A DNA stretch of 64,000 nucleotides. Source: Torymus aiolomorphi. Lineage: Eukaryota; Arthropoda; Insecta; Hymenoptera; Torymidae. Location: assembly GCA_036365515.1 (NCBI GenBank), contig CM070874.1:109381235-109445234 (forward strand), given 5' to 3'. Below, piece by piece: positions 8,870-50,946 of this stretch; position 1 is the first letter of the stretch, and each line of letters begins with the position of its first letter. The notes below the pieces were generated by a model. It had not been told where the DNA came from. It ran no database searches and was given only the letters and a program-made list of their open reading frames with translations. A program made the translations under genes and the position numbers.

Positions 8870-8946
8870 TCTTTTTTTTTGTTTCAGGTAAGAATCTTCT
8901 TCGATAAAGGTCTATTTTTACCGCATAGAGGCCAATTACCGTAAGT
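8870..8946 (+). promoter_or_regulatory. Recursive splice site 1 (ratchet point) with RS-exon
   Basis: A thymine-rich tract ends in TTTCAG at 8882-8887 and is followed immediately by GTAAGA at 8888-8893. A complete 3' splice site is thus fused to a complete 5' splice site with no exon between. The roughly 80 bases upstream contain no other AG, as for a true acceptor, and AT-rich branch-point-like sequence (TTATTAAATTATTA) lies in that zone. A second donor, GTAAGT, begins at 8941, which would define a 53-nt RS-exon at 8888-8940. The known role of such sites (Drosophila and vertebrate long introns) is stepwise removal of a giant intron. After the first step the regenerated 5' site is reused, and the RS-exon is normally skipped. 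Confidence 0.75.
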
Positions 8947-9743
8947 TAACAATAATGCATAATCTTCTATCCGGTTTCAATTAACTGCAATACAAAGTTT
9001 TATAAATAAGTGACTCTCGATAACCGTATTTTCACTTCTAAAAGTCACTCGTCAATTTCGAACCTGTTATTTACCCACCCAATCTCGATAGAATTTCTCA
9101 ATTACGTTTCTTTTCACGCTCCAAAAAAAAAAAAAAAAACGAAGCTGACGACTTCCCTACAACCAACATACCCAGTCATCCTTAACCACTGCTCCAACAC
9201 TATATACACACCTCAATATAACGCAATAACGTTCTCGCGCAAAACCGTTAATATAAAACCGCCAACCACCCCGGAAAAAAACGCCGTCCGCACAATCAAT
9301 TTCCAGCAGCGAGCGAGAACTGCCTAACTATAATACACGCGCACAATGCCAGGAGAGCAACCGCTGAACAAACGAAATCAAATCTCTCTCCCTCTCTCTC
9401 TCTCCTTCGTTCTCTTATATGCAAAGGTTTCTGCCGCCCCGCCGACGTCGCCAGGAATTTCACACGACGCCCGGCGAGCCGCGACCGCACGCCGAGAGAG
9501 AGAAACCGCGGCTGCGTATATATATATACATACCTCGGCGCGCAGGTGCGATTATAGAGAGCAGGGGACGATAATTTTTTTTTTCTTCTTGGCGAAGGGA
9601 ATTCGGTGTTTTTTCGAAGGGCTAATGGGTAGTTGGGGTGATCAGGAATTTTTTTTTTCGTGTCGGCGGGGTGGAGAGAGAGAGAGAATGGGTGCGGGAT
9701 TAATGTAGTTTCGATTGGGTCGCGGTAAGTGGTCGGAGATTAT
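8947..9743. other. Noncoding DNA: one skew module
   Basis: C/A-rich DNA (about 9040-9330, with a run of A at 9123-9139) passes into a CpG core with (CT)n (9385-9410) and then G/T-rich DNA (9590-9740). I see no gene or RNA in it. Confidence 0.7.
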
Positions 9744-9967
9744 ATGGGTCTGAAGTTTACAACGTTGGGACGCAACGAAATAAAAAAATAATCCATTTTA
9801 CTTCAAGTTTATACTAATTAATATTAATTTTATGTGTAGATTGCGGGTTTTATAGTATAAAATAGCTTTATAACGAAGGTTTGGATAAAATTTTCATTGT
9901 TTAATAACTTTAAGCAATTGTAAAAAATGATTTCGTTGCATTCCAACGATGCAAACTTCAGACCCAT
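9744..9967. mobile_element. MITE family with ATGGGTCTGAAGTTT ends, copy 1 (224 bp)
   Basis: The ends ATGGGTCTGAAGTTTACAAC and GATGCAAACTTCAGACCCAT are inverted near-copies of about 30 bp. The interior aligns along its length with copies at 21633-21857 and 41027-41634. No coding frame is present. A target duplication is not clear at this copy. Confidence 0.85.
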
Positions 9968-10979
9968 GAGATTATAAGGGCTGTTTGATGTAATTCGCGT
10001 GCCGAAATTCTGTTCTTTTTTTTTTAGTAAGTACATTAAAATTTTTTTTTTAGTAAGTAAATTAAATCGAGTGGAATGGTTTTTTTTTCGGTTTCGGCTG
10101 TACACTATTACAGTCGGGGAAAACTGATGGGCTTTCGATGGATGTTATCAAGCACGCTGTATTCTATTGTTACAACAATTTGAGTATTCTTATAAATGTT
10201 TACAGTTTGATTATATCGAACGAATTAAAAACACGATATCAAACGTTTTTGCTTTCTTACAAAAATACCTTCACAATCCCAAAATTACCATCCACTTCCA
10301 ATACAATCCACTTAATGACCCAAAAAGAGTACTCCAACCCGGCGCTGAACCTCCGCAATTACACCCGCGCACCCGGCTTCAGCCGGGCCAAAATTCGCGC
10401 AGCCACACACCGCTTCAGGCCAATTACCAAAAAAGCGTCGTCGTCGTCGCGCACGTCGCTATACGACGAGAGAGAGTGGGAGCAGGTGCTTCCTCGCATA
10501 AACCATCAGCCTAACGAGCTTTCTCCCCACCCCATCCACTTCTCTCTCTCTCTCTCTCGCGAGACATTAGACGCCGTGTAACGTTAGACGACGCCATCTC
10601 GCACGCGCGCGCGCGCGAATCCAACGTCAACATCCGGCGTGTGAGCGAGCGAGCGCGAGTGAGCTTATATAAAGCATTCGTCGCGGCAGCGGCAGCAGCA
10701 GCGACGGCGAAGAAATGGGAATAGTTTTGCGGAAGAGGGAGAGGGATGGGGAGAGAGCAAGGGTGACAACTGAATTAACTTTGCGCGGAGAAGGTGGAGG
10801 AGTAGTAGTGCAGTTGCAGCGTGTAGTGATGGGATGGACGTGTTGTTTGGAATATCCGCGGGAATTTCATTCGGTGAAGTGCGTATGCGAGCGTATATAA
10901 TGTCGTTATAGGGTTTGTTTTTGGTGTGTAATAGTCGTGGATTCTGGTAATCGAATTTTTGATATGCGTACCGATTCAT

Positions 10980-10980
<1 letters not shown>
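9968..10980. other. Noncoding DNA: one skew module
   Basis: Poly-T-rich AT DNA (10010-10095) is followed by C/A-rich DNA (10250-10540) with (CT)n at about 10541-10558, a CpG core (10560-10700) and G-rich DNA (10700-10920). The overlapping plus-strand frames at 10138-10581 and 10167-10514 share the same bases in different phases and neither resembles a protein. Confidence 0.7.

Positions 10981-11074
<94 letters not shown>
10981..11074. repeat. Compound microsatellite (AAT)n(CA)n(TA)n
   Basis: About ten TAA/AAT units run from 10981, followed by about 24 CA units (to about 11060) and about seven TA units. It lies between the G-rich flank of one module and the C-rich flank of the next. Confidence 0.95.
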
Positions 11075-11959
11075 GTTGAGAAAGAAAGTTTTTTTATTAA
11101 ATAACTAGAATTTTTATGAGATTTCTTCAATCTGTTACTGTTTACTGAAAAAACCACGAAACCAATTAACTTATTAAAAATGTTTCCTATACTCTTCCCA
11201 GTCGTATTTCTCTATTTGTACGCCATAAACTTTATATACCTATATAAGAATTCATTCCGAAGACTAATTACAACAAACTATTGACAAAAATAAGAACCGA
11301 TATAAAACCCCTTTATTATTTTTCAACCATATACATACATATACCCTACGTGCACTCATCCTTCAAGACTACCCACACCCACATTCCGCGCTAATCTCCG
11401 TAAACACAATTAAAGCGCGTTCTCTCTCTCTCTCGCGTCCTCCTCCCAATTTACGAGCGCAAATATCGGCTCCCATAAATACGACCTCTCTCGTACTCCC
11501 CTCCTCGAAAGACTCGCCGCCGCCGCCGCCGCGACGCACTCACGCACTATCAATTACTTTATTTCCTCCGCTCGGACCTCTTATCAAAATGTAATTAACC
11601 CTCCTCTCCTCCCCTACTCTTCTCCCGAGAAACAAAGATAAATTCAGCGCGCACATAATCCCGCGCGCTCGCGCTTTGCATTGGAAATTCGCGCGTTCAT
11701 CTTCATTAACCCACTACTCGCCTTTTTCCCCACAGCACAGCCCTTCTTTCTTCCCTCGCTGTGTGCTACACTCTCTCCCCTCCCCCCTTCCACCTAAATG
11801 CAGAGACTCTTTGTCGGGGCGCGCGCGTCCCTGCGGTGAAATTCTGTCACCCCTTTTTTCGCTCGCCACTCTCACGGATAACCCAGAGAGAGAGAGAAAG
11901 AGTAGAGTGTATAGCCTCGTCGTCGTTGTCCCCCTCTTTTAAGGCTCCCCGTGCAAGCA

Positions 11960-11993
<34 letters not shown>

Positions 11994-14446
11994 TAGGAGA
12001 GCGGGTTGTGATGTATACCGCGCGTGCACCGGGGCTCGTAAGTCGTTGCGCCCGCGACGTTTTTCGCTACCACGAACACGCGCGCCTGGTTTTTACGGTT
12101 TGCAGGGTGTGTATGTGTGTGTACTGCAGTGCGGGGATGCGGTGGAAAAGGTATTTAGAGTGGTTTTGGGTGAATTTTAGGTTTTTGTAAAGGATTTTTG
12201 TTGTTTTGGGAATTGAAAAACACAGATTTTCATTAAAAATACTTTTCAAAATGTCCTTTATTTTATAGTACAATGGGAAAGTATATTTCGAGCAAACTTT
12301 CTTTCTCTCTATTCAAATGTTATGAATAGAATGTTTCATTGGCCGCGAAAAGGGGACATAATATACACGTCCACTGCATTTCGCAAATTACTGAATCACC
12401 ACCTCCTTCGCTCCGACTTTAATATTTCAAATTAAACCGGTGCACGGGTCGAATATTAAAATGAACCACGCAGATGACCATTTCCCAGTTCAAATCCGTT
12501 CGAAATCCCCCAGCTCGCTCCTCCGCATAAATATTTATTTATCGGAGAAACGCAAAACAACCCCCCCCGACCCTAATGCATTCAGCAGCTCTATATACCG
12601 CTACCGCCGTGGCAGTCACACCTGTTTCTTATACATCTCTCCTCCCTTTTTGTTCGCCCGGCCATCAATTTATCTTTTTCTCTCTCTCTCTCTCGCTCCC
12701 TCCCCTCCCGCGCCTGCTTTTTGCTAAAGTGTATTGCATTGGCTGCTCTCCTGGGTATTAGAAGCATCCGCGCGCTACCTCACCCGTTTCTCGCTCGGCT
12801 TCGCCCCGGATTTTCCCCGCCCCGCGCGCCCTCTTTCACTTATTTCGCCGAAGGTGAAATTTCGGACGCGCCTGCGTGTGCGCACGCTGGGATATCAGGT
12901 GGTGGATCGAAGCGGTTACGGATCGTTTCGTCCCGTGCTCCCCTCTCTCCTTTATCTCGCCTTCGTCCCTGCGCATATCTATATACACACAGCCATATAC
13001 GTTTGTATATATAATATACACACCCCCGTTTTACTTATTCTCTGGTTAGTCTTCTGTGCATATATGCGAGAGAAGCAGCGGCGTCGTCTGGCCCGCCGGA
13101 GATTAGAACCTCGATGTGTGTGCAAAGGGAATCTGTAGACGTCGGGCGCGGGGGAGAGACACTTTTTCCTTTATTCTCCGCAGGAGCAGGGGAGGGAGAC
13201 AGAATTAAGCGTCCGCTTTTTTCCCTTAAATTTGCGGTAATCCGAGAGAAAGAGAAAGAGAGAGCGTTATCGACGCGCGAGATCGCGATAAGGACGACGA
13301 TCGCGCTTTTCCCCCTCCTAATGCGCTCGCATTTCACGTTTCTTATTCTCTCGTTGCCTCTTTCTCTCTCTCTTTTTTTTATTCTTTTTATTCTCGCCCG
13401 CGGGCGAGGAAGATTAAAACCCGAGCGCGGGGGAGTTGGGTGCTACGACGTATTACAGGAGCGCCGAAAATTGGGCGCGTGTTTCTTCGCTGGGGTAAAT
13501 CTCTTTCAGAACTGTATCAAAAACAATAGGCGGAGGTTTGAGAGCAACGAGGATTCTGAGATTGTGCTATCTGGATACATTTGTTCTCGACCTGATTATA
13601 TGCTTAGGAAACACCGAATTTTCTTATAATAACGTTTTGGGCTTTATCAGTGAATTATAAAAAGATTTTTCGAGCATTTCAAAAGATAGTTGCTTAAATT
13701 ACGTTTGCTGTAGAAAGTTTGAAGAAGAATTGAGATTTGTCGAAGCGGAAAGCTTGAAAAAGTATTTCTAGCACAATTAAAATATTCAGGGAAATAGAAA
13801 GGGAACTGAAAAACAAGGTGATTACTAAACTGTCGTAGGAAAATTTTTAGACTGCAAAAAAGGTTAAGTAGCACCGAGGGATGTGACATTTTAGTTTAGG
13901 AGCAGAGGCGTTGCAAGGTATGAAGTGTGATGCGATAGTTTTAAGAGCGTAAACAATTAGGTATAATAATAGCAATGTAATTGAACGTGTAGTACCTGAA
14001 ATAAAGGCTGTGCGAACTTATGTAATGTTTTGTATAAAGAAAAAATGGTAGCTGTATTGTGTCTAACAAATGTATATATATGCAAGCGTAAAGAACAACG
14101 TACATAATAATTTAAATAATTTATATTTAAATATAAGTGTAAAGCGAAGGGTATGAATGAGTGTATGTTGAATTTAGTTAAGAAACTTTGTAAACCAAGT
14201 CCATTTGTTTATATGTAAGTATTTCTAGCACAATTAAATATCAATGATTCTCATTCCGATGAGTTTGAAAGACAACAAGAAATTAGAACCATCAATTATG
14301 ACAATCCAATTGTCAATAAAGACTCATTATTCCAACCCATATATTATGAAATCATCTTCTTTACGTATTCTATTCAAAATCGAAAACAACATTTTTAGTT
14401 TCTAACATAATACTGACAACCGAATTATCAAGTTTCGAAAATTTAA
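11075..14446. other. Noncoding DNA: two skew modules and a long AT-rich valley
   Basis: C/A-rich DNA (11180-11640) leads through a core with (CT)n (11421-11434) and (GA)n (11960-11995) to G/T-rich DNA (12060-12200). A second module runs from C-rich DNA (12380-12510) through a long CpG core (12700-13400) into G-rich DNA (13400-13560). From 13620 to 14440 the sequence is AT-rich and featureless. The largest frame (171 codons, 13114-13629) is composed largely of microsatellite translation and is not supported as a gene. Confidence 0.65.
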
Positions 14447-14650
14447 GGTGATGTGATACCCACACTATTACTCAATTCTGGGTTCCCGTTTTTCTCCTTC
14501 AATTTTAAACTTTTTGAAAAAAACTCTTTGACACGTTTTAAGTTTAATAAAGAACTATAACGTATCAACGAGTTTTTTCCTTAAAATTAAAAATTGAATG
14601 AGAAAAACGGGAACCCAATTTTGAGTAATAGCGTGGGTATCGCATCACTT
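14447..14650. mobile_element. Hairpin MITE, TTAA-associated (~204 bp)
   Basis: The left arm GGTGATGTGATACCCACACT is mirrored by AGCGTGGGTATCGCATCACTT at the right end. Pairing continues inward through CTGGGTTCCCGTTTTTCTCC and GAGAAAAACGGGAACCCA, so almost the whole element folds on itself. TTAA precedes the left end (14443-14446); the right copy is not intact. The left terminus resembles that of the TTAA-flanked insertion at 41111 (GGCGATGTGAACC), so the two may be relatives. Confidence 0.8.
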
Positions 14651-15365
14651 CCATTTTTACTCACCTATATAGTAAAACAACGCGAACCAACATAAACGTA
14701 ATATAACACTCATGAGCGACAACACTCAGCCAATCTATAAATACCACGGTACCACCGCGCCAACAACATCCATCCCATCAATCGCTAAAACACATCGCGC
14801 CATTTACCAAACAATATCGTAACCGAAGATAACCCAACCGCACTCCATATACACACACACAGAGATAAATTAAACAAACGAACGACGTGGTGTCCTACAC
14901 TTCCTACACCTCGCGGGCGATACGGCGCGCAAAGGGCCGCGAGCTAAAATATTCACGATTGTTCGTCTCCGCCGTTCTTCCCGGTGAATGGATCGAGGAA
15001 AGACCTCCTGCTGACGCAGCGCGCGAGAATCTCTCTTGGTTTCGCGTATTTAGGTTATGTCGCGCGGGAACAGCGATTTCCCGATAGCGCGAGAGTGTAA
15101 GGTGGCATTGTGCAGTCGGCGCGGTTGGAGAAATGACTCGCAGGCGCTATTTTTAGGGGGATCCGGTGTGGAATCCGTTCGGCGAGATTGATAGAATGAA
15201 TTTTAAGTTTCTTTTATTTTAAAGTCTGAATGCCGCCGGTTAATAATATCATTTGAAATTAGAAAATGTCACTAAATTCATAGAGTAATAATTCGACTAT
15301 CCGTTAAAAATGTATCCACGTAAAGTCTTTACAATCTATGTAAAGACTTAACGAACTTTTCCGTT

Positions 15366-15370
<5 letters not shown>
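14651..15370. other. Noncoding DNA: one skew module
   Basis: C/A-rich DNA (14690-14880) passes through a CpG core (14900-15080) into G/T-rich DNA (15080-15200), then AT-rich DNA. A short perfect hairpin, GTAAAGTCTTTAC overlapping a second copy of GTAAAGACTTA, lies at about 15319-15350. No gene is visible. Confidence 0.65.
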
Positions 15371-15411
<41 letters not shown>

Positions 15412-15418
15412 ATCGCGA
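15371..15418. repeat. Poly-A run of 48
   Basis: An uninterrupted run of A follows CCGTTTCTTT. It could be the tail of a retroposed sequence, but I recognise no source transcript upstream and no flanking target duplication, so it may simply be a homopolymer expansion. Confidence 0.9.
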
Positions 15419-17169
15419 AGCCAAGTCAGTAATGCAGTTTTGTTCTAAGGCTTTAATTTTAGCCGCGTAAAATCCGTTTGATATCGCTCGAGTTATCCTT
15501 TTACAACTGGTTTAGTAATTTGAGAAACCGTTCGTTCCGCTCGCATGCTGCAGCAGCAACAGCGGCAGTAGATCAGAAACTTTCTCGCGTAATCTCATTT
15601 CTCTGATTATCTCATTATATCGACCTCTAAGATCTCATTTCCTCATTACTCCTATAACTATCGAATTACCTCACCTGCGCGGTTTTACACGTCCCGGCCA
15701 CTTTATAACTTTCGCGAGCTTGCAATTATTTCTGATTTCTTACCGTCTCGCCGTTACTGCTATCGCCTCTTCTTCCTCTTCTTCTTCTTCGAGTTATTCT
15801 CCTCCGCGCCATCTAAAAACGCCGTCGTAAAACTCAAATCGCGAGCCAATGTTTTCTTCTTGTTAACGATCGTCGCGAAACTGAAAGCTCTCTCTCTCTC
15901 TCTCTCTCTCTCTCGTCGCCCCCTCAGCGCAAATGTTGACACTCCGTCGCTCCTATCCTCTTTGTCTTCGCGCGAGCACGACATTTCTCGGTGGACTTTG
16001 CGCGCGCGGCCCCTCCAATTACTCGCGCAACGCGATAAGTAAACGCTATCAGACACGACTTATATGTAAAGGATCGCTCGCGTGCTCGCGATGCGGATAT
16101 TTTTAGAGCGAGTGCGGAGGAGGCGCGGTCGTAAAGCACGCGGGCATTTTTTCCTTTTACTTTTAAGAGCCCCCGTCGCTGCTTTTTGCATCCGCGATTT
16201 TTCGGTATATTTTTAGACGCCGGAAGAAGAGTGCAGTGGGGCGGCAAGTTTTTGACGATCGCGCGCGATGGAAGAGGCGGAGATATCGCGCGGCGACGCT
16301 TCCTCCGATCAAGCGCCTCGAATTATGGCCCAGGCTGTAAAATATCTTTTTGGATAATATTTTTAGGGTGTATTAAAAATAAGCGGAACGGGGGGGTATT
16401 AAAAAATGTTGTGGAAGCTTTTTCGGTGTTGGGTTGAGGGGGCCACGAAAAGAGTCCACGTAATTAGCGGAGGAAGCGCTGCAAAAAAACAAAAAAAAAA
16501 ACCATACGGTAACGCGTATGGAACTTTAAGCATTTTACGAGAGCGCGCATATTTTGGTAAACGCGCAAGTCCAAAAAAATAGGAAAGGCAGAGAGAAGCT
16601 AAACTAACAAAGCAAGTTAATCGCTTTTTAATACTTTCGCTTTATTTGGATTTTAAAAGCGCAAAAAAATTTGAATATAAAACTCGTAAAAGATATATAT
16701 TACGTATTTAAAGACGTATTACACATTCATATTCTTACGATATAATATACCGGCACACAGAAGCTTTGCTCACTTCTCAAAAGCCATTTCCTCTGTGTAA
16801 TTCTACGACCGCAAAATGCAAAAATCGAACCTTTTACACAAGAAAAAAAAGGGGGCAAAAACAAAACTCTCGTGCACACACAACAGAACTCAATCGGCAA
16901 TCTCCCCTTTTCGAAAACCTCTCTCTCTCTCTCTCTTTCAACCACACGAGAAAGCAAAACGAACGTACGAACCAAGCAGCAGCAGCAGCCGAGAAAGAGA
17001 GAAAAGGCCCTCTCTCGTGTAATGCAATTAGCAAGCACAAAAAGCTCCTCGCGCACGTACACGAGATTTTAAAAGCACGCACACGAGCCGAGCGGCGAAG
17101 AAAAGCAAGAAGAGAGCGAGAGCAAGAGAGCGAAAAGCCCCTTGAAATTCCGCGCGCCTCTCTCTTGCA

Positions 17170-17171
<2 letters not shown>
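15419..17171. other. Noncoding DNA: skew modules
   Basis: A C/T-rich stretch (15560-15800) leads to (CT)n at 15889-15914, a CpG core (15920-16320) and G-rich DNA (16200-16450), then AT-rich DNA. C/A-rich DNA resumes at 16740-16990. Frames open on both strands at 16727-17275 are low-complexity. No gene is supported. Confidence 0.65.

Positions 17172-17232
<61 letters not shown>
17172..17232. repeat. (CT)n microsatellite, 61 bp
   Basis: A perfect CT/TC dinucleotide run lies on the left side of the CpG core at 17280-17350, opposite G-rich DNA at 17340-17650. Confidence 0.95.
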
Positions 17233-17233
<1 letters not shown>

Positions 17234-17872
17234 AGATTTCTGGGTAGATGTAGCGCGGAGATAAATGTCACATAATTAACCGGCGCGAGTAATTAATTTC
17301 ACGCCGAAGGAATCGGAATGCCGCGGCGCGCTGCGCGAAGACGACACGCTGCGGAGGAGTAAGCGAGAGAGAGAGGAAGGACGATACGTGTGCGGCGAGG
17401 AAAATTGATAGGAGAAGAGAGGAGGGACGAGATTGCTAGAGGAGGAAAAGTGGTAAGAAGGGTGCGAGTGAGAGAGAGAAGAGGAAGGATTTTAATGGGA
17501 ATTGATTCGTTTTTATGCGACGCGCTGGAGGTGGCTGATGGGGTGTATTGGTTGCCGCGCGAGAGGAGATGCGGTGTGCTGCAATTATATATATATTGAT
17601 GATTCGGTCGTCGGGAGGATGGCGCGATCTGTGTTTCCATTCGAAGATGATTATAATGTTTTATTTGCGGATGATGGCGGTATTAAAGTGTCGTTATGAT
17701 TAAATTAAAGCTATAATTAGGAAATAAATGAACGATCGGTTCTTTTATGCGTCATTTTGTCGGAAAGTTAAATTGAAAAGCAGCATTATACTATAAATTT
17801 AAAACTGCTATATTAAAGTACATTATAATAAAGATTTTAATATCGATTTAGCATAATAATATTATCATCGTA

Positions 17873-18114
17873 CACTGAGAAAAAAGTTTTGGAAAAATTA
17901 CTGTACTGTCTGATAAAGCTACCACAAACTGTAAATAAAACCCAAAAGATATTTTACAGTAAATTTGACAGTACTTATAGTAAATTTTCTTATCTTTCTA
18001 GCAAAATTTCTTATAAAGTATATGGTTATCTTTTGAGTTTATGGTGGCTTTCCCAGAAAGTATAATAATTTTTACAAAATTATTAAAAATTTTTACTAAA
18101 ATTTTTTCTCAGTG
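17873..18114. mobile_element. TA-flanked CACTGAGAAAAA element, 242 bp
   Basis: The ends CACTGAGAAAAAAGTTTTGG and ATTTTTTCTCAGTG are inverted repeats. TA flanks both sides (17871-17872 and 18115-18116). Interior blocks also pair (ACCACAAACTGTAAATAAAA against the region of AGTTTATGGTGG). It shares its terminal motif with 3890-4872 and 53573-53770. It has no coding frame. Confidence 0.85.
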
Positions 18115-21100
18115 TATACGAAACTTATTCCCAGACATCCACAAAAATATCCTCCCAACGCCCCGCCGCACTTTTAAATCCGCTAATTGCCGCATACAAA
18201 TCAGTCGGCCGCAGAAAGAGAGCCGTCACTATATACGCCCGCGGCTTTCAGCCTCGCGTTCGTCGTCGTATAATATGCCACCAGCCGCGCGTCTTTGTGT
18301 ATCTCCGTCTCCTTCCTCAACCTTTCCTGCGCGCTCTCTGACTTTAATACACCGGAATAATACGCATTGATCAAGCACGCCACGATATCAAACTTCCTTC
18401 TTCCTTTTCCATTCATTCTTCTCTCCTATACTTATACTCTTAGAGAGAAAAATTTACGGACACGTTACGTTCTCTGGTTTATGCACGAATATATATATAT
18501 ACATATAACTTTCTGAACTCGTGCGGCTTTGCATACGTAGCGCGCAAAGGAAACTCTTTAAAAGTCATTTCTTTTGGCCGCGTGACGTCGCTCGTCTGTT
18601 TTGCCCGTTTTTCGGGCTGAAAGTGCAGAGGTGCACGCGGCCCCAGCGCGATTATTTTATTGCTCGAGCGCGGAAAATTTTTCTGTGAGGCGTGCGGTAT
18701 ATAAGGGGGAGAGAGAGAGGATTTTTGGCCGATTTTAGTGGGAAAATAGTTTAGCGTAAAGGTTTTGGGTGGAAATGGAATGTTTCAATGTGCGGAAGAA
18801 GATTTTTTATTTCAAAGATGTGTAAATTAATTGTTTAAAAAAAGTAATTTACATGAGAATTATACGAGAATTGTTATTAAAAACAAATGATGCGCTGCAT
18901 TGGTAGTAAATATAATTTGTAGATAAACCACAATTAATAATTAATTAAAGACTTTAACGTTTGTAGCTTCTACTTGACAATCTCTATTTACAAAAGACAT
19001 TGGTATCCACAATTCCCTACATTATTTCCCAACAACTATACATTTAAATCTCTTCCTCCATCTACGAATATAACGTTATTGTTCCAATACGAACATCTCA
19101 CTATCCTCCTCTCCATTCCACCTTAGACAAGGTTCAATTGACTACTCACCACTACATCCAATCAGCACCCACAAAAATCCACTCACACCCACCTCCCGGC
19201 ATTAATAAACAGATATTAAATTTACCGAAGCGCGTCTATTGCTCTCACCGACCCGCTCGCTCCCCAACTATATAACACCGTACCACGCGGAGGAGAAAAG
19301 GGGAGCAGCAGCAGCAGCAGCGGCGCTATGTGCCGTCCCTCTCTCTACCTCTGCGCCTCTGCCATAAGCGGATGTCGTGTATCGGTATATCGCATTAGAC
19401 CGGCATTCGCGCACGACGCCGCCGCGCACGTAAGACCATCACGACCCGACGGATTGCATGCGCATTTAATATTAGCTCTCTCACGAAATTCTCCCACCCA
19501 AAGGCTGTGTGTGTGTGTGTGTGTGTGTGTATACCTTTTGTTGCGGGCGCCGGTTTTTTTTTTTGCCCAGAGGTAGAAGGAGACGAAGGAGGAGAGGGCA
19601 AAATTAAACGGCTTCGATCGCGTTTTATTTCGCCTAATTGATTGAATTTCGCTTAATTGAATTTGTAATTAAATTTTGATTTGGTTTTGTGGCCGCTATG
19701 TGAGTAAGTTTCGAGAGATCAAGGGCTTCTTGGTATTATAAGATGCATCATTGGTATATTATAATATAGGTCTCTTTGAATGTTTTTGCATTCTGAGAAA
19801 TCTCGAAGCTTACTTCGAATTAATATACTTGCCCTGTATACGTTGCATAAAAACAATTTCTGTTACGGTTAATTGAACACAGAAGTATGTTATATAATTC
19901 ATTGCTAATTACTCTTCAGTAAAAATTACTCCTATTTCTATAGAAAAATACAAAACAATTTTGATGTCGCAACAGTACCTTACACACACAGGAGCTGCGC
20001 GCAGAAACTCTGAAACCCACATTACAACAGTCATCTTCTTTATTAATAATCGCATTTTTTCAAAGCCACGATCGCATTAAGACATGCGGCAAGAAACGTT
20101 CGCTAATTATGCTTATATATACGCAGAAAGCGAATCCTTCGTATATATACATATACAACCACACGCGCGTTATCGGCCAGCTCACATGCGCACAGTGCAA
20201 AAGCCATCTCGCCTCGACTCCCGCGTCGTCATCTCCGGTTCATTAGCCGTTTTCTTACTTATATACCAAAAAAAAGACTCTCTCGCACACCTTCCTTATC
20301 AATATCGCACAGTGCACGTCTCTCATCGCACACACGCGCGCGCGCGAAACCTCGCCACGGCAATATCGCGGCGCGCTTCCTCCCTCCAGAGTGTAAACAG
20401 AGAGAGACGAGAGAAAGAGAGAGAAGACTGCAGCAGCGAGACGGAAAAAGAAAGATTAAGCGGGCGAAAAAACGAGGACTCGAGAGCGCCTCTCCCGTTC
20501 TCAAGGAGGAAGTTCGTGGTAAAGGGATTCATTAAGGGCGAGCCGAATCGACTCTCTCTCTCTCTCTCTCTCTCTCTCGAGCTCGGGCAACGAGGAAGTG
20601 CAGACTCGCGAGAGCGCGCGGCGATACGATAACGCGAGAAGCAATTATCCTCGCGGGAGCGTGAGGCTGAGCCAGCAGCGTATGCTGCCGCTGCTCTTTG
20701 CCTATTACCGCCGTCCCGAGATACCCCAGGATTACACGCTCCTATATATATGTGTGTGTGTCTGTGTGCGAGCGTGGATTAATCCCGCTCGCGCGTTTTC
20801 TCACTTTAAGGCAAACGGTCTCGAGGAGTGGCTAGGTAGAGAAAAAGAGAGGAGGAGGAACGCGAACAAAGACAAGCGCGCCGCTGGTACTGTTAGACCG
20901 TGTGTGTATAAGAGCTAGCTTCGTCGTTGTCGTCGTCACGCGAGATATCGTATACATGTATGTGTGTGTGTGTGTGTGTATATATGGGAGGCGGAGAAGG
21001 GCCGACGTATCGGTGATGCGAAGAGTAGTAGCTCGCTTGAGCATCGCGTGAAGGCAGACAGAGTATTTTTGGGAAAGGGTGAGAGATGGGAGAGGCAGCA

Positions 21101-22638: not shown

Positions 22639-22642
22639 TTAA

Positions 22643-38500: not shown

Positions 38501-38558
38501 AGATTAACCGTTTATTTATTTAAACGCCCAACAATATTCTTTTCTTTTCTCTTCTCAG

Positions 38559-38619
38559 TGGCATTTTCCGAATCTTTGTTTCATTTGCCATCGGCGATAG
38601 GACTTCGTGTCACACTCCG
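38559..38619 (+). other. Candidate 61-nt exon (weak)
   Basis: A strong 3' splice site, TTCTTTTCTTTTCTCTTCTCAG, ends at 38558. It has no other AG for over 50 bases and a perfect TACTAAC branch-point motif about 65 bases upstream. The first plausible donor is GTGACG at 38620, which is poor. The 61-nt interval is open in two of three frames. It could be a cassette exon of the host gene, a cryptic exon or a decoy acceptor. No protein similarity is recognisable. Confidence 0.22.
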
Positions 38620-38639
38620 GTGACGAGAGAGAACGCGAA

Positions 38640-40702
<2,063 letters not shown>

Positions 40703-40892
40703 CACGGAAAAAAATAATTAGTTAATTCTACATTTCCTATACAGTTGATTTGACTATAAAGTGGCAAGTTCGTTTTACTTTCAAAAATATCGGTAGAATT
40801 TTCATTTTGAAATGTAGAATGTACATTTTTGGAAAAAAGGGAATTATTACTTTTTCTAATTTAGTTGATTTTACTATTTTATTTTTTCCGTG
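40703..40892. mobile_element. CACGGAAAAAA-ended MITE, 190 bp
   Basis: CACGGAAAAAAATAATTAGT at the left is mirrored by ACTATTTTATTTTTTCCGTG at the right. Inner segments TTCTACATTTC and GAAATGTAGAA also pair. No coding frame; target duplication unresolved. Confidence 0.8.
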
Positions 40893-41026
40893 TTGATTTA
40901 TCCAGTTATGTAAAAAACTATTCATTCAATTCAGAGGTTTAATCGAGCAATACTTTCTCAATCAACAGCTCTTAATTATTATTGGATTTTATCTATACCT
41001 TTAACTTAAATCACTTTTCTACTATC

Positions 41027-41634: not shown

Positions 41635-43105
41635 CATCCATTATCACCTACTTCACAAATCCTCCGACGATATTTTTTCATCTCCACCACCACGACAAAT
41701 TCATCGTCGTGATTCTCATTTACGTCGCGCTCTAACTCTCTCTCTCTCGCGGCGCCTTACCACTACCGCCGCCGCTATACGTTTGCGCGAAACGCGATAA
41801 CGTAAAAATTCTATCATCGCGGTCTTAAAGAACGAGAGCATGCGTAAGCGACGCGCGCACTTACCGCGAAGAAAAATGGTAAAGTTGTTGTCGGGGACGC
41901 GCGCAAAAAGCGTGTACGGCTCGTCGTTGTCGCAAAATACGATATCTTCAGCGCACGCGCGCGTCAAAGGCGTCGTATTTTTTTTTTTTTTTAGAACGAT
42001 GTTTATCTCCTCCCCTCGGATATACGGGGCTTTAAAATAAAATTAGGTTTCATAGCGGGACGATATCCAGCTCACATCTCGCAGCGTTTTATATAATAAC
42101 GTTATATATGCGCGATATGCATTTTTGATATTTCGAAAACTAGTATAAAGAAGAGAGAGAGAGAGAGATATATATATATAAAACCGCAGTTTTCTAAAAC
42201 ATAAAAAATTCAAAACGTTACAAGCACGCGCGTGCGCGCGCGCTTTTCACGACTCCGATGTGTACATGCGTGCGTGCAGCAAGTTTGATGTATCCAAAAC
42301 TCCATTAACGGATACAAGTGCGGAGTGGATGGAGCCGTAAAAGCGTCGCGCGCCATCGGACCCTGGCCGCGTGCGTTCATACGTGGCTCTCTCGTGTCTG
42401 TAGGTATATATATACGGACACGGGCCAACTTCCGAAATTCATTTTGGCCGAATTATTAAAAGCGCAGCTATTTGCGCTAGTGTGTATACGTGCGCGTGTA
42501 ACTTTGATACATCATCGGCAAAGATTTCAGATCTAAAAAATAAAGAAGTTATATATATATTCTTTTTGTATATATCGGACAGAGAGATAAAGGATGAATG
42601 GATGGATTTAATTTAAATGTACGATGCGTCAAGGTGACGTGATATTTAGTTTCTTTTCTACCTCCCTGACACATCTGCCATTCTTATCCTTTTCGGATCT
42701 AACGATTGTATAAAGGGGTTATAACTGTCTGACGAGGCAAAAAGTCACTGTAGAAGCCGCGGCTCTGTATAACAGACAACTGTACACCGCGAAACGGACA
42801 AAGAAGGAAACTAAAGTTTTCTTCTCTTCTCTGACGGATCAGTAAAAAAAGAAGTGGAGTGCGCGAAGGGTAACGATATAGCGCGGAGATAAGAATGGAA
42901 AGTGAGAAAAGACAAGAGATGGAGAAGTTTGGGAACGCGCAGAGGAGTGCAAGTGATAGAGAGACGGCCTGTGTTCAGGTAGATTGATTATGATCGATGC
43001 GAGGATCGAGCGAGGCCGAGAAAAAAAAAATAGCTCGCGTACAATGGGAGACAAGATACGATGGATAACGCACTTATTTTAGAGAGCCTATCTCGAAAAG
43101 TATAT

Positions 43106-43108
<3 letters not shown>
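41635..43108. other. Noncoding DNA: modules
   Basis: C/T-rich DNA with (CT)n at 41735-41747 leads to a CpG core (41750-41970). A second core (42220-42480) with (TA)n and (GA)n runs at about 42150-42180 passes into G/A-rich DNA (42560-43050). No gene is supported. Confidence 0.6.
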
Positions 43109-43169
<61 letters not shown>

Positions 43170-43184
43170 TGTGTGTGTGTGTGT
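43109..43184. repeat. (GT)n microsatellite, 76 bp
   Basis: GT units with one GGG interruption at about 43164-43167. It lies on the right, G-rich side of the core at 42220-42480. Confidence 0.97.
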
Positions 43185-46139
43185 ATATATAGTAAAAATT
43201 AATATGGACTATGGGAAAGTTTCGGTAGCAACCTATACCAGCCTCTCGTTTAGTTCTTTCTGTTCTTTTTTCTATATATAACATCAACTGTTATTGTACG
43301 TTCACATATACAAGCGCTATATCTACCATCCTAATTTCTGCCCAATTTTTACGAGCAAATCCCCTAACACCCACGCGTACGCACGATAAACAGTCGCAAA
43401 CTCAAAGTTGCACTCGCTCGCACGAGCTCTCTGACGTAATTAACGAAGTTACGATCGCGCCGTTATATACCTGCCATATCCTACTCTCCTCTCAGCGCGC
43501 TATCTGCGTTCCGTTTATGAATGCGCGTGCGCACGCGAAATGAGATACGCGCGCCGTGCAGTTTATCGCATTGATTTGCATTTCGGGACAATGGGAAGGG
43601 AGAGAGAGAGAGGGACTCGCGCGTTGATTGACGCGGGATTTTTCGGTCGCCGCGGACGACTGTTAATTGTCGACGAGAGGGAGAGAGGAAAAGGATCAAA
43701 CGAATGGAACGAATGCGTGTGTGTGTGTGTGTGTATCGGTGGCGCGAGTGATTGATTGTTGGGATATAAATTAGGGGGGTTGAATTAATTTTACACTCGG
43801 CGAGTTTACAGTGGTCGTTTGGGGGAGGGCCAGGCTGATATAATTGACTCGATCGCGGTCAGTTGTCGGTTTCTTATTAGTGCTGTGATATAAAATATTT
43901 GTTAGTTTTTGTGGGTCACCTTTTAAATACAAATTTAAATCTGTCATTTTTCATACACTGGCTCAATTCTTTTTTAAAAGTCGATTTCTAAAATGAATTC
44001 TAAAATTACTTTGTTACAGAATAAAAAAACTGTTACTTTGTACAATGTAATATTCAGAAAGAACCTATTGTCATTAAAATAATACAAACATGAAAAAAAA
44101 AATGTTCAAACAATAGTAAACTCAAACACACAGATGGCAAAGAACCGTACCTACCATTCGTAATGCTCACGCCATCAGGATGAAATAATCGATACGAAAG
44201 AACAGAGCACAGTTATCAATAACCGCGCGGCGGTGGCGAGCGATTCAGCTGACACAAAGCCACCTCCGTATAATACATATCCGCCCACAAAAACTCTCTT
44301 TATCTCTCCACAATCGATGATCGAACCCTCTCTCTCTCTCCCTCGGACTTCCGCCAAAAATTATCTCCCGGGGCCGAAAAAACGGACCGAACTGGAGCAC
44401 CTCGCCAACCGATATGAATTACACATATATACTTTCCCACGCGCGCTCGCATAACAATACACCGTCGCCGCGACGGAGACGGAAAATCCTCTCTCCCCGC
44501 GAATCATAAAGAAATTTTTCGGCGAGCACTTTGTTCCAGTTTGTTAACTCCCTCCGCGCTCGCGCGACCGATGAAGCGTAAGTGCGCACGCACGCGAGGA
44601 CGGCGAGTTCCGGCTTTCGCTCGCCGCGCACTACATTCCCCCGACGTTATTATTGCAGAAGTCACTGCGCCGCGGATGACGGCGATTACTTCTCTCTGCG
44701 CGGCTTGGGTTTTTTTTTGCTCGACACGCTTTTTTTCAGCGGGCGCGGGTTGCGGGTTTCTTATTATCGCCGGGGAGAGCCGCAGCGATGTTTGCGCGCC
44801 GCGCGATGATGAAGAGGGTTTTACGGTTTTCTTGCGGCTCGCTTTTTCTCGTTTCAATTCGCGAGATTTGTTGTGGGAATCGATCCGCGTTTGTTTTGGC
44901 TCGCCACCCTGGAACAGAGCCGTGATGCGGGTGTGACGACGACGGGGCGGATATATAAAAGAGAGATTTGGTGCGGTTACCGTGATACGTGTATCGATTG
45001 TTTTGTATATAGGGTGTATCGTTCGTACTTACTGAATTATACGCGTTGTAATAAATGGATTTTTAAATTGATTAAAATGAACAACGGAATGGGAATATGA
45101 TTGTGCGCTTACCTAGTTAACTAGATACTTCAGCTCAACGATAATAATGAATGTATATAATGTTTGTGTGTGCGCAACGAAATTTAATTGAGGCACATAT
45201 TATAGCAATGGACGCGAGCGTCGTTATATTCGTTTTATTAGATAAATAATCGCGCTAAATTTCAATTCGATCTATGACGATGCAAATGCAATTTGTGTCT
45301 TTACTATTCACTGCGACGAGCGCGCGTGCGTGCGCGTGTGTGTCCGTTCAAAGTAATTCAGAACAATCGTAATGAACGCTCGAACATGTGCATTAGCCTG
45401 TTTTCCACATTACGAGCGCGTTTCGGGTATAAATTTATATGTATGATGATTTTAGTTGATTATATATCTAAGCGATTTCAAGTCAATGGACATTCAATTA
45501 GTGGAACGACAGCTGTATATCCACGATTACAATAAATATAGTATATATGACACACAGCAAACTTTGCACAAACGTATACATCCCTGCCAATAGAAAAAAA
45601 AATCGAAATAACACTTCTCACATTCCCCAACGACTTATTAACCTCATCCCCGTATATATCCCTATACCCACTCACAAGCCCTCTCCCCGGCGTCATTCAA
45701 ATCACCAAGCCCACCCTCCCCTCTCCATCTCAAAAGTCGCTCATACAAAACGCTCGCCCTCCCCCCTAAGAGTTGAGCACTGCCACACATGTATATGTAC
45801 ACACATACGAGAGAAGGGAGAAGTCAAGTTATGAGAAGCACATATACAATGGGGGCACGTCCAGGTATGTTTTCACCCGGCAGATGCGGCGAACAAAAGT
45901 CCTCCGCCCCGCTCGTTCGGACGTCTTTATGCGAGCGCGCGCAGACGACGTTCGAATTAGACGCATAGGAATTTTTCGACTCTCCTGCGCGCGCGCGAGT
46001 ATAAGAGGGAGAGGTGCTGCTGGGATTTTGAGGGGATGGTATGGTCGCCGGTCGTGGGGAAGGTTGAGGGGATAGGATCTAATTTGTTTATTAGGATGGT
46101 AATGGAAAGGTGATGTGAAATGTATAGTGAGTATAATCT
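43185..46139. other. Noncoding DNA: modules and AT-rich valleys
   Basis: Modules run from 43320-43400 (C/A) to 43680-43900 (G/T, with (GT)n at about 43715-43734); from 44240-44470 to 44900-44990, around a CpG core at 44460-44900; and from 45550-45780 to 46010-46110. The AT-rich valley at 45000-45290 contains ATGCAAAT and TAAT-rich sequence but nothing I can assign. No gene is supported. Confidence 0.6.
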
Positions 46140-46375
46140 ATATACGAAATGGCCAAGAAGTTAGAAAATAGCTAGTAAAACTGGCTAATTAATCGCTATT
46201 AATAAAACGATTTTTCGATCATTATTTGCCTATTTCTTAGATTTGACGTAACAACAAAAATATTCGTATTTAATTTACCTACTAATTTTATCTTTGATGA
46301 AAGAGCATTAAAGTGCATTGGATGGCTTACCAAAATATAAATAAATAATATCAACTAATAAATCATTTGTTGTAC

Positions 46376-46702
46376 TCATTCTATGAACAATTCAGTAAAA
46401 TTGTTATTTCTCCGCCTGATTCTGTCTCTCTCACTCCTTGTCATAACAGCAAGCCTTCTGCTAGCCATTTCCGGACTAAAGAAACTGATTAGTTTTAATA
46501 CCTTTAAAATACTCAAGAACAAGCTTGTGCTTGTCTTCGAAAAAGTCATTCTATTTTTCAATCTATTAAATGGCCAAATAATAGGAGAAAAAGCGTTTTA
46601 TCGCGAGCTAGAAACTGGACAAGAGAAATTCCTATTTTGTAGCAAGTTTCTAATATAAATGGTCAATTATCAGTTATAAAATGTTTTGGATTTCCACCAG
46701 GG
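46376..46702. mobile_element. Degenerate or one-ended CCCTG-family element
   Basis: The right end GGATTTCCACCAGGG (to 46702, followed by TA) matches the terminus of the elements at 56527-56687 and 32014-32276. A clean left end is not found. Blocks such as CTAGCCATTTC (about 46461), AAATGGCCAA (about 46569) and a similar GAAATGGCCAAGAAG at about 46148 suggest a rearranged copy that may extend left to about 46140. The two opposite-strand open frames here overlap and are not supported as genes. Confidence 0.4.
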
Positions 46703-46704
46703 TA

Positions 46705-49700
46705 GTGCAGGAGTTGTTTAGGGTTGTCGAATAGTATTGGATTATCGTGCTTAATTTGTTAGAGGAATGATGTATCGTTATATGATACATTATACGAGTG
46801 TTTGGACAATACAGCAGATGCTTTATTAACAATCACGATCCTTTATATGGACTAATTCTTTCGGATCAATTACACATGCTGCAGAATCGCATTACACACG
46901 TATATCAGAGCGCATTCCATTGTAAATTCTATTTAAGTTCGATCCTCTTATAGTTATATCAGAGTACAATGGTACTTTATACGGCGTTATGTAATTCATT
47001 ACAGTAGAGATGAACGTTTTATGAGCTCTTGTACGATAATCGATATATCAGCTGCGCCGCGATCACATTAAATTTATAATACGCGCGACGCTTTGATTCA
47101 CAATCGGCCGAGTATTAACTTTAAATTTTCAATATAAAATCTCTCTCTCTCTATAATAATCTTCTGTGATATACAGAGACGAAATCAGCGCGGTATTAAA
47201 TAATATATCAGAAATATATATATATCATAATTAAAAATCCGCCGCGCCATCGACTGCAGTTTCCTCCCATTCTCCCACCATCCATATTATATATAGAATC
47301 AAAATCCAAGCTTCCCCTACTCGAAACTCCTCCATTTAATCAATACCGATCCTCCAAGATAAATTTTATTTATACCTCAAGTGCGCTCGCGCGGCCACCT
47401 ACAGATTTCACCTATTATTACGGCTTCTCTCCTCTTCCTTTCACCGTTCCAAGACACGCGCGCGCGCACACACATACACAGCGCGCACTTAACCCCACCT
47501 CACAAAGAATCTCACAAGAGACCACGACGACGGCGACAAAGCTGCTGAAAATTAAAAGAAAAGCAACAAAACCGCTCTCTAAGTCCGCCTCTCTCCCCGG
47601 CGGATCACTCGCAAGTGCGCCTCTCCTCCGGACGTTCAATATAAACCCCCGAAAAGCCTCCCCCCGTGTCGTCGTCGTCGTCGTCGTCTCGCGACAAAGA
47701 GAAGAAGGAGGAAGAAGAAGACGAAGGAGAAGAAGCGCGGTGAAAAGGAAATGGAAGCCACTCGAGCGCCATTGTTGCCCCCGCGCGCGGTTTTTCAAAG
47801 CAGAGATTGCCCGCGCGCGCTCGGAAAAATGAGAGAGTGTGTGTGCGATGGGAAATTGGGCCGACCTCGATTAGAGGGAGAGCCGGTCGCTGCGTGTTTT
47901 TCGGATTTTAAGTCGAGAGCGCTGTTTCGGACGCGAGAGAGAAAGAGAGGAGAGACGGCTCTTGCGCGCTCACCACCACTGCGCGAGTTTTCGCGAAATT
48001 ACTATACTGGTCCTTTTTTCGGTCGCCTTTCTTTTTCCTGCGGTTAGTTTTGTTTCGGTCGTTGCGGATGAAGAATTCGCGGCGCGGGTTTTTTGCGGAG
48101 GGAGAGAGGTCGGCGATGTGCGAATTTAAGGTGATGAGGGGCTTGCGTTGCGTTGTTTGAGTTTTCGGTTGGTTTGGTTGTAATTTTTTTTAGGTGTGTT
48201 ACTTGTTGTCACTAGATTGACTTTTACATGAATTGAAAAATTGTGAAAAATGTAAATAAAATAGATTTTAAACGTATATATAAAATCTCATAACATCTGC
48301 CACGTTTCGTCTTTTTTTATTTTATCAATTAACAACACGCAAACTCCAGGAAATCCCAATTCCGCGCAATTTCTCGTCGCGGCACTAGTCAAACGAACCA
48401 CTACGTGGCATCCCCAAAATTATCACCTCGTAAAAAAATCCCCCATTATACCCCATCTTCTCTTCCCGCATCCCCGTAATTACACCACCGGCGACCCAAA
48501 ACAGACCAAAACACACCATATACACATAACCACCCATCCGCTCGTAATCCTCAGAAAAATCTCCGCGGTCGCGACAAAAAGACGAGACAAAAAAAATGTG
48601 TGTCACCGGTGCATTTACGCTGTGTGCTGCTGCTGCACCGGCTTCGCCACTTTTTCCTCTCTTCTCCACCTCCCCCCTTCTAACTGTGCACAGGGCGTAA
48701 ATTACAGTTTGCGTTTTGCGGTCGCGCGGCGGCGGTCGAAAAACCGCAGGGAAAAGGTCGTCGACCAGTGGTGGTGGTGGTGGTGTGCACCGCTTTTTGA
48801 TATATTCGCACCGGATGGCCGAAGGAGGAGAGAAAGAGAAGCGCGATCGTTCCTTTCGTCGTCGTGCGTCCGTGATTTCTTAATTTATCGCGCAGGAAGG
48901 ATGGTGTAATTGCTCGGCTGGACGGCCGCGCGGAGGTTAAAGGGGAGGATGTGTGTGGGGAGACGACTGACGGTATGGGTCGAGGTTCACGGTCTTCTTC
49001 GTCTTCTTAAATGCGCTTCCTCTCCGTTTGAGCTTTTTAGGTGTATTGTCTTGCAGACGAGAGATAGGGGGAATTCTCAGCGTTTGTGCAATATTTCGTT
49101 TTGGTGTAAGAGAGCAATTTTTGTTAAACTACTCGACGAATTTAGTTTGTTTAGTGCGGTTTATACGAGGTTATTATAGTGCGGTTCTCTGATATTGTCA
49201 CCTAAAGTGCGGTATAATTTTGGCATTCTGCGAAACGTTTCTCAGATTCACCAGTCTCAAATAATATTTTCTTGAAATTGCAACTGTGATTGTTACAAAG
49301 TTGCTGGCTCTGTTAGCTCCTGGGAGTCAAGTGCTAAATTATATTCTTGTTCTAACAATTGCAACAACAAATTTTACATATCTAACTTAATTTGAGTTTA
49401 ATTTAAGTTCAACTCTTAAGACCAAACAATGTAATATAAAATAAATTTAACGGTAACATCTTATTTACGATGCTACTCGGCACTACACTTCTCAACAACA
49501 AAAATTCCTAAAAAAAAATTTAGCATTAAAAGCCTTATCACAGCCCAAGACAATCCATCGTCCCGGCCGATCCCCAACAATCGCTGCACCGATTACTCGC
49601 CACGGCCATGCACCGTGCGCTCGTTAAAATTCCGGCGCGCGCACTTTATTACTTCCTCGCCATCGCCGAAAATCACCCGCACTGCTCTCCACACTTGACC

Positions 49701-50855
49701 TCCCGTCCGCCCTCATTATACACGGCGTCCGACTAGGAAACACACAAAGCAAAAAAGAAAAAAAGAGAGAGAACGTCGTCCACCGTGACCAAAGTGCACA
49801 CCGGATGGACGCCTTGCCCACGTGTATAATATATATACATGTAGTAGTACAGTCCTTTCTGTCATCCATACTCCGCGCGGCTTCTGCCGAAAATTACTCG
49901 TAGGGCCTCGGCCTTTCCCACGAGTCGATTAACATCGACGAGAGACTTTTTTTCATGCGAACTTTATCGCGCCACGGCTCTTCATTAAACGCACGCCGCT
50001 GCCGTCTGTGCGAGAGATGCGCACGAGAGATAGGTGTGTGCCTCGAGTGTTCTACGTGTATATATACATGTTTGTGGTGCGGTAATAAGGGATTGTGGCG
50101 TTTTTTGGGTAACGTTGGTGTCGCCTTTTTGGTGGGAAATTTGGTGGGCCGGAGTGAGGAATTCGTGTTGAAGTGGTTCTTTGAGCGAATAGTCGCGTAT
50201 TTTTGGTATAACATGTGTTTGAGGTTGTTTTGTTTTGGAAAAATTGATGGGATAAAGGATAGAAAATACATCTATACACATCTATAGTGAAAGAACCAAA
50301 ACTACGAATTTTTTGAATTTTTAGTAAATTATGACTATATTTAACAATTACCTCAAAAGCGGCCATTAAAGTAACTATAATTTAAGCTAAAAACGATTCG
50401 GAAATGATTTAATTCCATATAACGACTGAGCAAGGAAGCACCACACACACACGAAATTCATGTTTTACTTTTATTAAAATAATGACACGTTAAACTCACG
50501 GCGCCGTTAAAACGGGAGCGCACCTTTCGAAGAACAAAATTGTAATGGATTACTTATCCTGCCCACCATCTTTCGATGCGCAGATAAGGCGCGCTCAAGA
50601 GTGAGAGAGAGAGAGAGACAATGGCGTCGGTGGCGGCGCCTCTCGCACGGTCGTAATTTCGGATATTACTTTTTTTCTCTTAATTATCCGGATATTCTCC
50701 AAATTAAAGTAACGATCGTTTAGTGCGCCCCTCGAAAACGCGGCAATTTATACAACTCGCGCCATCGCCATATCCTCTCTCCAATACATAACGGACTTTA
50801 TATAATAAGGTACATATAAAATGCTAAAGAATATTTTTCAAAGGTTAATAATCGA
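46705..50855. other. Noncoding DNA: modules leading to ratchet point 3
   Basis: AT-rich, less repetitive DNA (46720-47240) is followed by modules from 47250-47480 (C/A) to 48050-48200 (G/T), with (GTC)n/(GTCGTC) at about 47667-47688; from 48310-48560 to 48900-49190; and from 49490-49760 to 50030-50270. AT-rich DNA (50290-50420) and a smaller CpG-rich patch (50500-50780) precede the splice site at 50875. No gene is supported. Confidence 0.65.
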
Positions 50856-50946
50856 ATGCTTTCTTTCTGTTTCAGGTAAGTTACCAGAGGCCCGTGGTTA
50901 TGTCTCTTCCCAAAATTCACATCCACGACAGCCGGTCCGCGTGAGT
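50856..50946 (+). promoter_or_regulatory. Recursive splice site 3 (ratchet point) with RS-exon
   Basis: GCTTTCTTTCTGTTTCAG ends at 50875 and is joined directly to GTAAGTTACC (50876 on). This is the closest of the three to the consensus YYYCAG|GTAAGT. TTAATAAT, a plausible branch-point region, lies about 25 bases upstream, and there is no AG for about 30 bases before the acceptor. A second donor, GTGAGT, begins at 50941 and would close a 65-nt RS-exon (50876-50940). It lies 23.2 kb after site 2 and 13.1 kb before the strong acceptor at 63985. Confidence 0.78.

What the first reader, a model, noticed from the sequence alone, without database searches (positions are those of the whole stretch)
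8870..50946. Three identical-core recursive splice sites in one plus-strand giant intron
The 11-mer TTTCAGGTAAG occurs at 8882, 27720 and 50870, always on the plus strand, and I found no inverse copy. By chance an 11-mer is expected far less than once in 64 kb. Each copy has a pyrimidine-rich tract and a marked AG-free zone upstream, so each is a complete 3' splice site fused to a complete 5' splice site. The spacing (18.8 and 23.2 kb) matches ratchet-point spacing known from Drosophila long introns. It also explains why 64 kb of sequence has no gene.
Basis: partly seen in the sequence, partly recalled or inferred. Interest (0 to 1): 0.93.

Follow-up and report, generated by a model that had tools for sequence, protein, structure and literature searches.

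The report
Ratchet splice sites in giant intron
A wasp gene has one very long intron that carries a one-way series of splice "stepping stones", so it is probably cut out piece by piece, as happens in some long fruit-fly introns.

Summary
In detail: TTTCAGGTAAG occurs exactly three times in the window, all on +.

The window lies inside one 194,387-bp intron of a + strand gene. The signal-peptide exon ends 59.6 kb upstream of the window and the next exon starts 70.8 kb downstream. The 628-aa protein belongs to the DUF7044/7042/7043 family; its best-scoring relatives are chalcid wasps.

The three sites belong to a train of seven + strand ratchet points, 16.1-26.4 kb apart. Five of the seven, including the three in the window, have a strong donor 46-65 nt downstream: the cryptic "RS-exon" described at fly ratchet points.

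At 100 copies of the 11-mer on another chromosome, such a donor lies 35-80 nt downstream in 36, against 7 at 95-140 nt. G at -7 marks 28 of 36 donor-bearing copies but 18 of 58 others, a possible ratchet-specific acceptor signature.

Known mechanism; new gene and lineage; possibly a new signature. RNA junctions, conservation and a genome-wide ordinary-acceptor control remain untested.

The parts
1..64000 (+). Interior of one 194,387-bp intron (window-relative -59592 to 134794) of a DUF7044/7042/7043-family gene; no exon of that gene found inside it
   Evidence: Exon scan, tblastn with 120 homologs, signal-exon scan, joined protein
8858..8892 (+). Ratchet point 1 of the window: pyrimidine tract, AG|GT junction between 8887 and 8888, 11-mer at 8882-8892
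   Evidence: matrix score 22.2 bits, AG-free 83 nt
8888..8946 (+). Cryptic RS-exon, 53 nt (8888-8940), with in-frame stop, and its donor ACC|GTAAGT at 8941-8946
27696..27730 (+). Ratchet point 2 of the window: AG|GT junction between 27725 and 27726, 11-mer at 27720-27730; weakest tract of the three
   Evidence: 16.6 bits, AG-free 72 nt; only 11th with a matrix from the gene's own splice sites
27726..27779 (+). RS-exon, 48 nt (27726-27773), open and in frame (would add 16 aa), and its donor CAC|GTAAGC at 27774-27779
50846..50880 (+). Ratchet point 3 of the window: AG|GT junction between 50875 and 50876, 11-mer at 50870-50880
   Evidence: 20.9 bits, AG-free 30 nt
50876..50946 (+). Cryptic RS-exon, 65 nt (50876-50940), frame-shifting, and its donor CGC|GTGAGT at 50941-50946

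Best explanation
The three sites are intronic ratchet points (zero-nucleotide recursive splice sites with cryptic RS-exons): the third, fourth and fifth of about seven in a 194-kb intron of a chalcid-wasp DUF7044-family gene. As the polymerase passes each site, the acceptor and a donor about 50 nt downstream define a short cryptic exon, and the upstream exon (ending ...GACG) is spliced to it. That puts exon 1 directly against GTAAG and regenerates a donor; the next splice leaves from the junction itself and the cryptic exon is discarded. The intron is so removed, probably 5' to 3', in about eight pieces of 34, 19, 16, 19, 23, 26, 21 and 36 kb, and the mRNA joins the signal-peptide exon to the DUF7044 exon. 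Shown by sequence: motif, strand bias, host intron, RS-exon donors, genome-wide pattern. Inferred: actual use, order, co-transcriptional timing, skipping of the RS-exons.
For: Three exact 11-mers on one strand. In the 194-kb intron, matrix hits of 16 bits or more: 8 on +, 1 on -; 60 shuffles of one strand: mean 0.23, maximum 2. With a donor of 6.5 bits or more 35-80 nt downstream: 5 on +, 0 on -; shuffles mean 0.05, maximum 1. RS-exons of 60, 46, 53, 48 and 65 nt match the about 50 nt of fly RS-exons (PMC8605326). In exon-1 context each of six regenerated donors outscores its RS-exon donor; the seventh site has none. Segments more even than random, P about 0.0009 for seven sites. Genome check on 100 unselected 11-mers: donor at 35-80 nt in 36, at 95-140 nt in 7; same-strand neighbours within 75 kb 14 of 17.
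Against: No RNA, no relative's genome. With the matrix from the gene's own 11 introns, 27726 ranks 11th of 837, behind two - strand sites and 48194(+). 77309 has only a weak RS donor and 98385 none. By the six intronic positions alone, the RS donor beats the ratchet donor at 8888 (9.4 against 7.3) and slightly at 27726 (7.5 against 7.3); the advantage comes from the exon-1 bases. Evenness is not significant with only the five GTAAG sites (P 0.42), and adding -27605 worsens it. At 14 bits the strands stand 8 to 3. The main matrix uses recalled weights.
Confidence: 0.9

Rival explanations
1. They are ordinary or regulated short cassette exons of 48-65 nt that begin with GTAAG (like the expressed Ubx microexons, themselves recursive) and are included in some mRNAs.
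For: Each has an acceptor and a donor 48-65 nt apart. The one at 27726 is in frame and open and would add 16 aa.
Against: Of five RS-exons read, two contain an in-frame stop and two shift the frame. None of 12 aligned homologs shows an insert of that size at the junction. In exon-1 context the regenerated donor is the stronger.
Confidence: 0.06
2. Transcripts also start inside the intron from an alternative first exon, so the window is partly upstream of a shorter transcript and only some sites act in it.
For: Trichogramma isoforms X1 and X2 of the same gene have different N-termini that join just before DUF7044.
Against: A scan of the region upstream of exon 2 for phase-1 signal-peptide exons found two candidates, of which only the MQG exon is convincing. 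It would not exclude recursive splicing of the long transcript.
Confidence: 0.1
3. Chance: an 11-mer and splice-like sequence with no function.
For: About half of the genome's 894 copies may be background, since the reversed pattern occurs 454 times; the matrix alone gives false positives such as the last coding exon at 162083.
Against: P about 3e-6 for three on one strand; 8 against 1 strand bias and RS-exon donors far above shuffles. Baseline for a donor of 6.5 bits at 35-80 nt after any AGGT in the intron is 53 of 395 on + and 84 of 442 on -.
Confidence: 0.03

Closest known systems
Drosophila intronic ratchet points with cryptic RS-exons (Ubx, kuz, Bx; PMC8605326, passages)
   Same: Juxtaposed acceptor and donor in a long intron, same strand as the gene; short RS-exon of about 50 nt with a downstream donor; poor coding potential
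   Different: Chalcid wasp; no RNA proof; G at -7 prominent here (fly logos not visible to me)
Fly multi-site recursive introns such as Ten-m intron 1 (PMC6110457, Results parts 1-2 of 3 and passages)
   Same: Several sites per intron (up to seven in flies, about seven here), placed to cut the intron into pieces; long introns near the gene start
   Different: Pieces here are 16-36 kb against a fly mean of 9.1 kb; intron 194 kb
RP-site enrichment in bee, beetle, mosquito and sea urchin large introns (PMC2773006, section 6 and passages)
   Same: Computed strand-biased RP sites in insect introns over 50 kb; bee 0.484 against 0.122 per 100 kb
   Different: A count by consensus; here one intron is resolved with host gene, RS-exon donors and spacing
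Vertebrate recursive splicing (RS-exons in long genes; PMC5126111, passages)
   Same: RS-exon and competition between two donors as a model
   Different: Human sites often lack the AG|GT core reported in flies (PMC5126111); vertebrate large introns show little RP enrichment (PMC2773006)

Membership tests
Insect intronic ratchet point | Acceptor fused to donor, (Y)nNCAG|GTAAGT | tested here: met
   All three window sites are TGTTTCAG|GTAAG; +6 is A, A and T. Tract weaker at 27726.
Insect intronic ratchet point | Lies in a very long intron, on the transcribed strand | tested here: met
   194,387-bp intron of a + strand gene; 8 against 1 strand bias at 16 bits.
Insect intronic ratchet point | Short RS-exon with downstream donor | tested here: met
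   53, 48 and 65 nt at the window sites; 5 of 7 in the intron at 6.5 bits or more, 77309 weak, 98385 none.
Insect intronic ratchet point | Regenerated donor stronger than RS-exon donor, so the RS-exon is skipped | tested here: inconclusive
   True for six of six with the exon-1 context; by intronic positions alone the RS donor is stronger at 8888 and 27726.
Insect intronic ratchet point | Sites divide the intron into similar pieces | tested here: met
   P about 0.0009 for seven sites; not significant with the five GTAAG sites alone.
Insect intronic ratchet point | Recursive junction reads, lariats, saw-tooth coverage | not testable with these tools
   No RNA data at hand.
Insect intronic ratchet point | Junction conserved among relatives | not testable with these tools
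   No related insect genome is held; the own genome has no relatives here.

The most novel reading that the evidence does not exclude
In this wasp, ratchet points use their own acceptor code, TGTTTCAG|GTAAG, with a G at -7 that interrupts the pyrimidine tract. It would separate stepping-stone acceptors, and perhaps the acceptor that ends a giant intron, from ordinary exon acceptors, and might be read by a U2AF variant or a UGUU-binding protein that favours recursive use.
Probability: 0.4. Interest if true: 0.72.

Novelty: new member of a known kind. Interest (0 to 1): 0.58.

Why it matters
Recursive splicing is worked out mainly in flies and vertebrates; for Hymenoptera my searches found only a computed count in bee. 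A 194-kb intron with about seven ratchet points, and dozens of similar sites on another chromosome of a 1.08-Gb wasp genome, suggests that the RS-exon mechanism extends beyond flies and lets one ask how ratchet spacing scales when introns grow. The -7G signature, if ordinary acceptors lack it genome-wide, would make a long-standing question testable: how the spliceosome tells a stepping stone from an exon end.

Tried and rejected
Rfam: 23 matches at E up to 1, each below its family's gathering score. No tRNA. Nested gene: 10 of the 70 stop-to-stop ORFs were scanned; 9 had no Pfam match and one a weak ZIP match (17 bits, cut-off 35.1) in a His-repeat; the other 60 were not scanned. 162083 (TTTCAG|GTGTGT) scores as a ratchet point but is the acceptor of the last coding exon. 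-27605 (weak donor GTAGTT, 4.2 bits in exon-1 context) was left out of the train as doubtful. The idea that the sites are copies of one repeat: +/-300 bp of eight sites do not match one another; one has a 91-bp, 75% match elsewhere and one a 26-bp match. G at -7 does not differ significantly between clustered and other C1 sites (15 of 27 against 31 of 73, P 0.17); it differs between donor-bearing and donor-less sites. PMC13105047 (passages) concerns human sequence features and does not mention insects.

Not obtained: a genome-wide gapped-pattern count, a 13-mer count, and a set of ordinary acceptors from other genes as control for -7G (genome search stayed busy).

Full report
Coordinates are window-relative (C2 coordinate minus 109,381,234); negative or above 64000 lies outside the window.

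OBSERVATION. TTTCAGGTAAG occurs three times, all on +, at 8882, 27720 and 50870; CAGGTAAG occurs three times on + (these) and never on -. The shared core is 13 nt, TGTTTCAGGTAAG. The window is C2:109381235-109445234 of a 1.08-Gb assembly of 21 contigs, where the 11-mer occurs 894 times against 454 for the reversed pattern. At that rate three on a given strand of 64 kb has P about 3e-6. A composite acceptor-plus-donor matrix with recalled, generic weights ranks these three first among the 296 AGGT of the window, both strands (22.2, 20.9, 16.6 bits; next 14.8 on -).

HOST GENE. An ab initio exon scan of the window plus 100 kb on each side found one strong + strand exon upstream and a series downstream. 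Pfam finds DUF7044, DUF7042 and DUF7043 in them; DUF7045 matches below its curated cut-off. A protein search gave 137 hits (120 listed), the five best from chalcid wasps: Phymastichus, Copidosoma, Eretmocerus and Trichogramma (two isoforms). With the 120 listed proteins, tblastn places matches only at 134.8-162.2 kb; the signal-peptide exon itself gave no hit. Exon 1 (-59722 to -59593, MQG...LLLLLLVTLLTVPCARAD) ends in phase 1 and fits exon 2; a scan of the region upstream of exon 2 for phase-1 signal-peptide exons gave two candidates, of which only this one is convincing. Twelve exons join into 628 aa, 76% identical to the Phymastichus protein over 601 aligned residues. The MQG start, or MQG within the N-terminus, recurs in 7 of 12 aligned homologs (Orussus, Athalia, Neodiprion, Leptopilina, Vespa, Venturia, Chelonus), MQE in 2 ants; the nearest relatives Phymastichus and Trichogramma lack it but have a comparable signal peptide. 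The intron between exons 1 and 2 is 194,387 bp and contains the whole window.

THE TRAIN. In that intron 8 sites on + and 1 on - reach 16 bits; 60 shuffles give a mean of 0.23, maximum 2. At 14 bits it is 8 to 3. Setting aside -27605 for its weak donor, seven remain: -25847, -7237, 8888, 27726, 50876, 77309, 98385. Segments are 33.7, 18.6, 16.1, 18.8, 23.2, 26.4, 21.1 and 36.4 kb; such evenness has P about 0.0009 for random placement, but the five GTAAG sites alone are not significant (P 0.42), and adding -27605 raises the variation. With a matrix from the gene's own 11 introns the top five sites are + sites of the train, but 27726 ranks 11th of 837, behind two - strand sites (91756, 14664) and 48194(+). 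27726 therefore rests on the 13-mer, its 72-nt AG-free zone and its downstream donor.

RS-EXONS. Fly ratchet points carry a cryptic exon of about 50 nt whose donor is normally out-competed by the regenerated one (PMC8605326, passages); in flies strong donors are enriched in later recursive segments (PMC6110457, passages). Here donors of 6.5 bits or more lie 60, 46, 53, 48 and 65 nt downstream of the first five sites. The combination occurs 5 times on +, 0 on -, mean 0.05 in shuffles; after any AGGT such a donor is found in 53 of 395 (+) and 84 of 442 (-). 77309 has a weak donor at +49, 98385 none. In the context of exon 1 (ACG) the regenerated donors score 10.7, 8.7, 8.6, 8.6, 10.7 and 8.0 against 8.4, 7.2, 6.4, 6.9, 6.5 and 5.3 for the RS-exon donors. 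Without the exon bases the RS donor is stronger at 8888 and slightly at 27726. Of the five RS-exons read in frame, two contain a stop, two shift the frame, and that at 27726 stays open.

GENOME CHECK. One search listed the first 100 places, all on C1. Of 17 neighbour gaps up to 75 kb, 14 join same-strand sites (8.9 gaps expected in all; same-strand excess P about 2e-4); one of the 14 is a duplicated repeat, and the bias fades at larger distances (29 to 18 at 500 kb). I fetched 311 bp around all 100. A donor of 6.5 bits or more lies 35-80 nt downstream in 36, and 95-140 nt downstream in 7. Sites with a same-strand neighbour within 75 kb have it more often (16 of 27 against 20 of 73, P 0.004). 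Six near-identical copies dropped, 94 remain: G at -7 in 28 of 36 donor-bearing and 18 of 58 donor-less sites (P about 1e-5), and the donor-bearing ones have the better T tract, which was not used to pick them. Before any TTTCAG in 324 kb around the window G is 33 of 240. In the intron 7 of 7 sites have G at -7, and so has -83509 upstream of exon 1; of ten ordinary acceptors of the gene one has it, the one that closes the giant intron. The two acceptors added later (printed) lack it. G at -7 did not differ between clustered and other sites (15 of 27 against 31 of 73, P 0.17). So -7G goes with RS-exon architecture, but a proper set of ordinary acceptors was not obtained.

COMPARISON. Flies: up to seven sites per intron, pieces of 9-15 kb (mean 9.1), non-random placement, enrichment in first introns (PMC6110457, Results parts 1 and 2 of 3). 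Bee large introns: 0.484 RP sites per 100 kb against 0.122 on the other strand (PMC2773006, section 6). The fly consensus in print is (Y)nNCAG|GTAAGT (PMC2773006 and PMC5126111, passages); fly logos are figures and were not visible, so -7G could be known there. Searches of the open-licence library for recursive splicing with parasitoid (0 papers), with Nasonia (2, by title unrelated, not read), and with ratchet and honey bee (only PMC2773006) found no experiment in Hymenoptera; subscription papers are not covered.

VERDICT. The sites are very probably genuine ratchet points of a known kind in a new gene and lineage. 'Chalcid wasp' is inferred from protein similarity; the assembly is unnamed. 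No RNA or comparative genome was available.

Noticed in passing
window-relative -83509 (L002; C2:109297725): A further ratchet-like site (GTTTCAG|GTATGT, donor CACGTAAGC at +43, G at -7) upstream of the signal-peptide exon, presumably in a 5' UTR intron. The MQG exon has an acceptor of its own.
   Followed up: partly
proteins P0004 and P0005: Trichogramma isoforms X1 and X2 of the host gene have different N-termini joined just before DUF7044, which points to alternative first exons at this boundary.
   Followed up: no
C1:21663309-21939659 (L045-L049): Five 11-mers in a row on + within 276 kb, three of them with a donor of 6.5 bits or more 35-47 nt downstream: probably another multi-ratchet intron; host gene not sought.
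   Followed up: no
C1:19904673 and C1:19946844 (L042, L043): Two 11-mers with the same upstream flank and no pyrimidine tract, a duplicated repeat rather than ratchet points.
   Followed up: partly
window 39635-40360: Long (CA/TG-type) repeat read as a poly-His-Thr ORF that gives a weak, sub-threshold ZIP transporter match.
   Followed up: partly
window 4001-6000: GC drops to 26% against about 36-48% in the other 2-kb bins.
   Followed up: no
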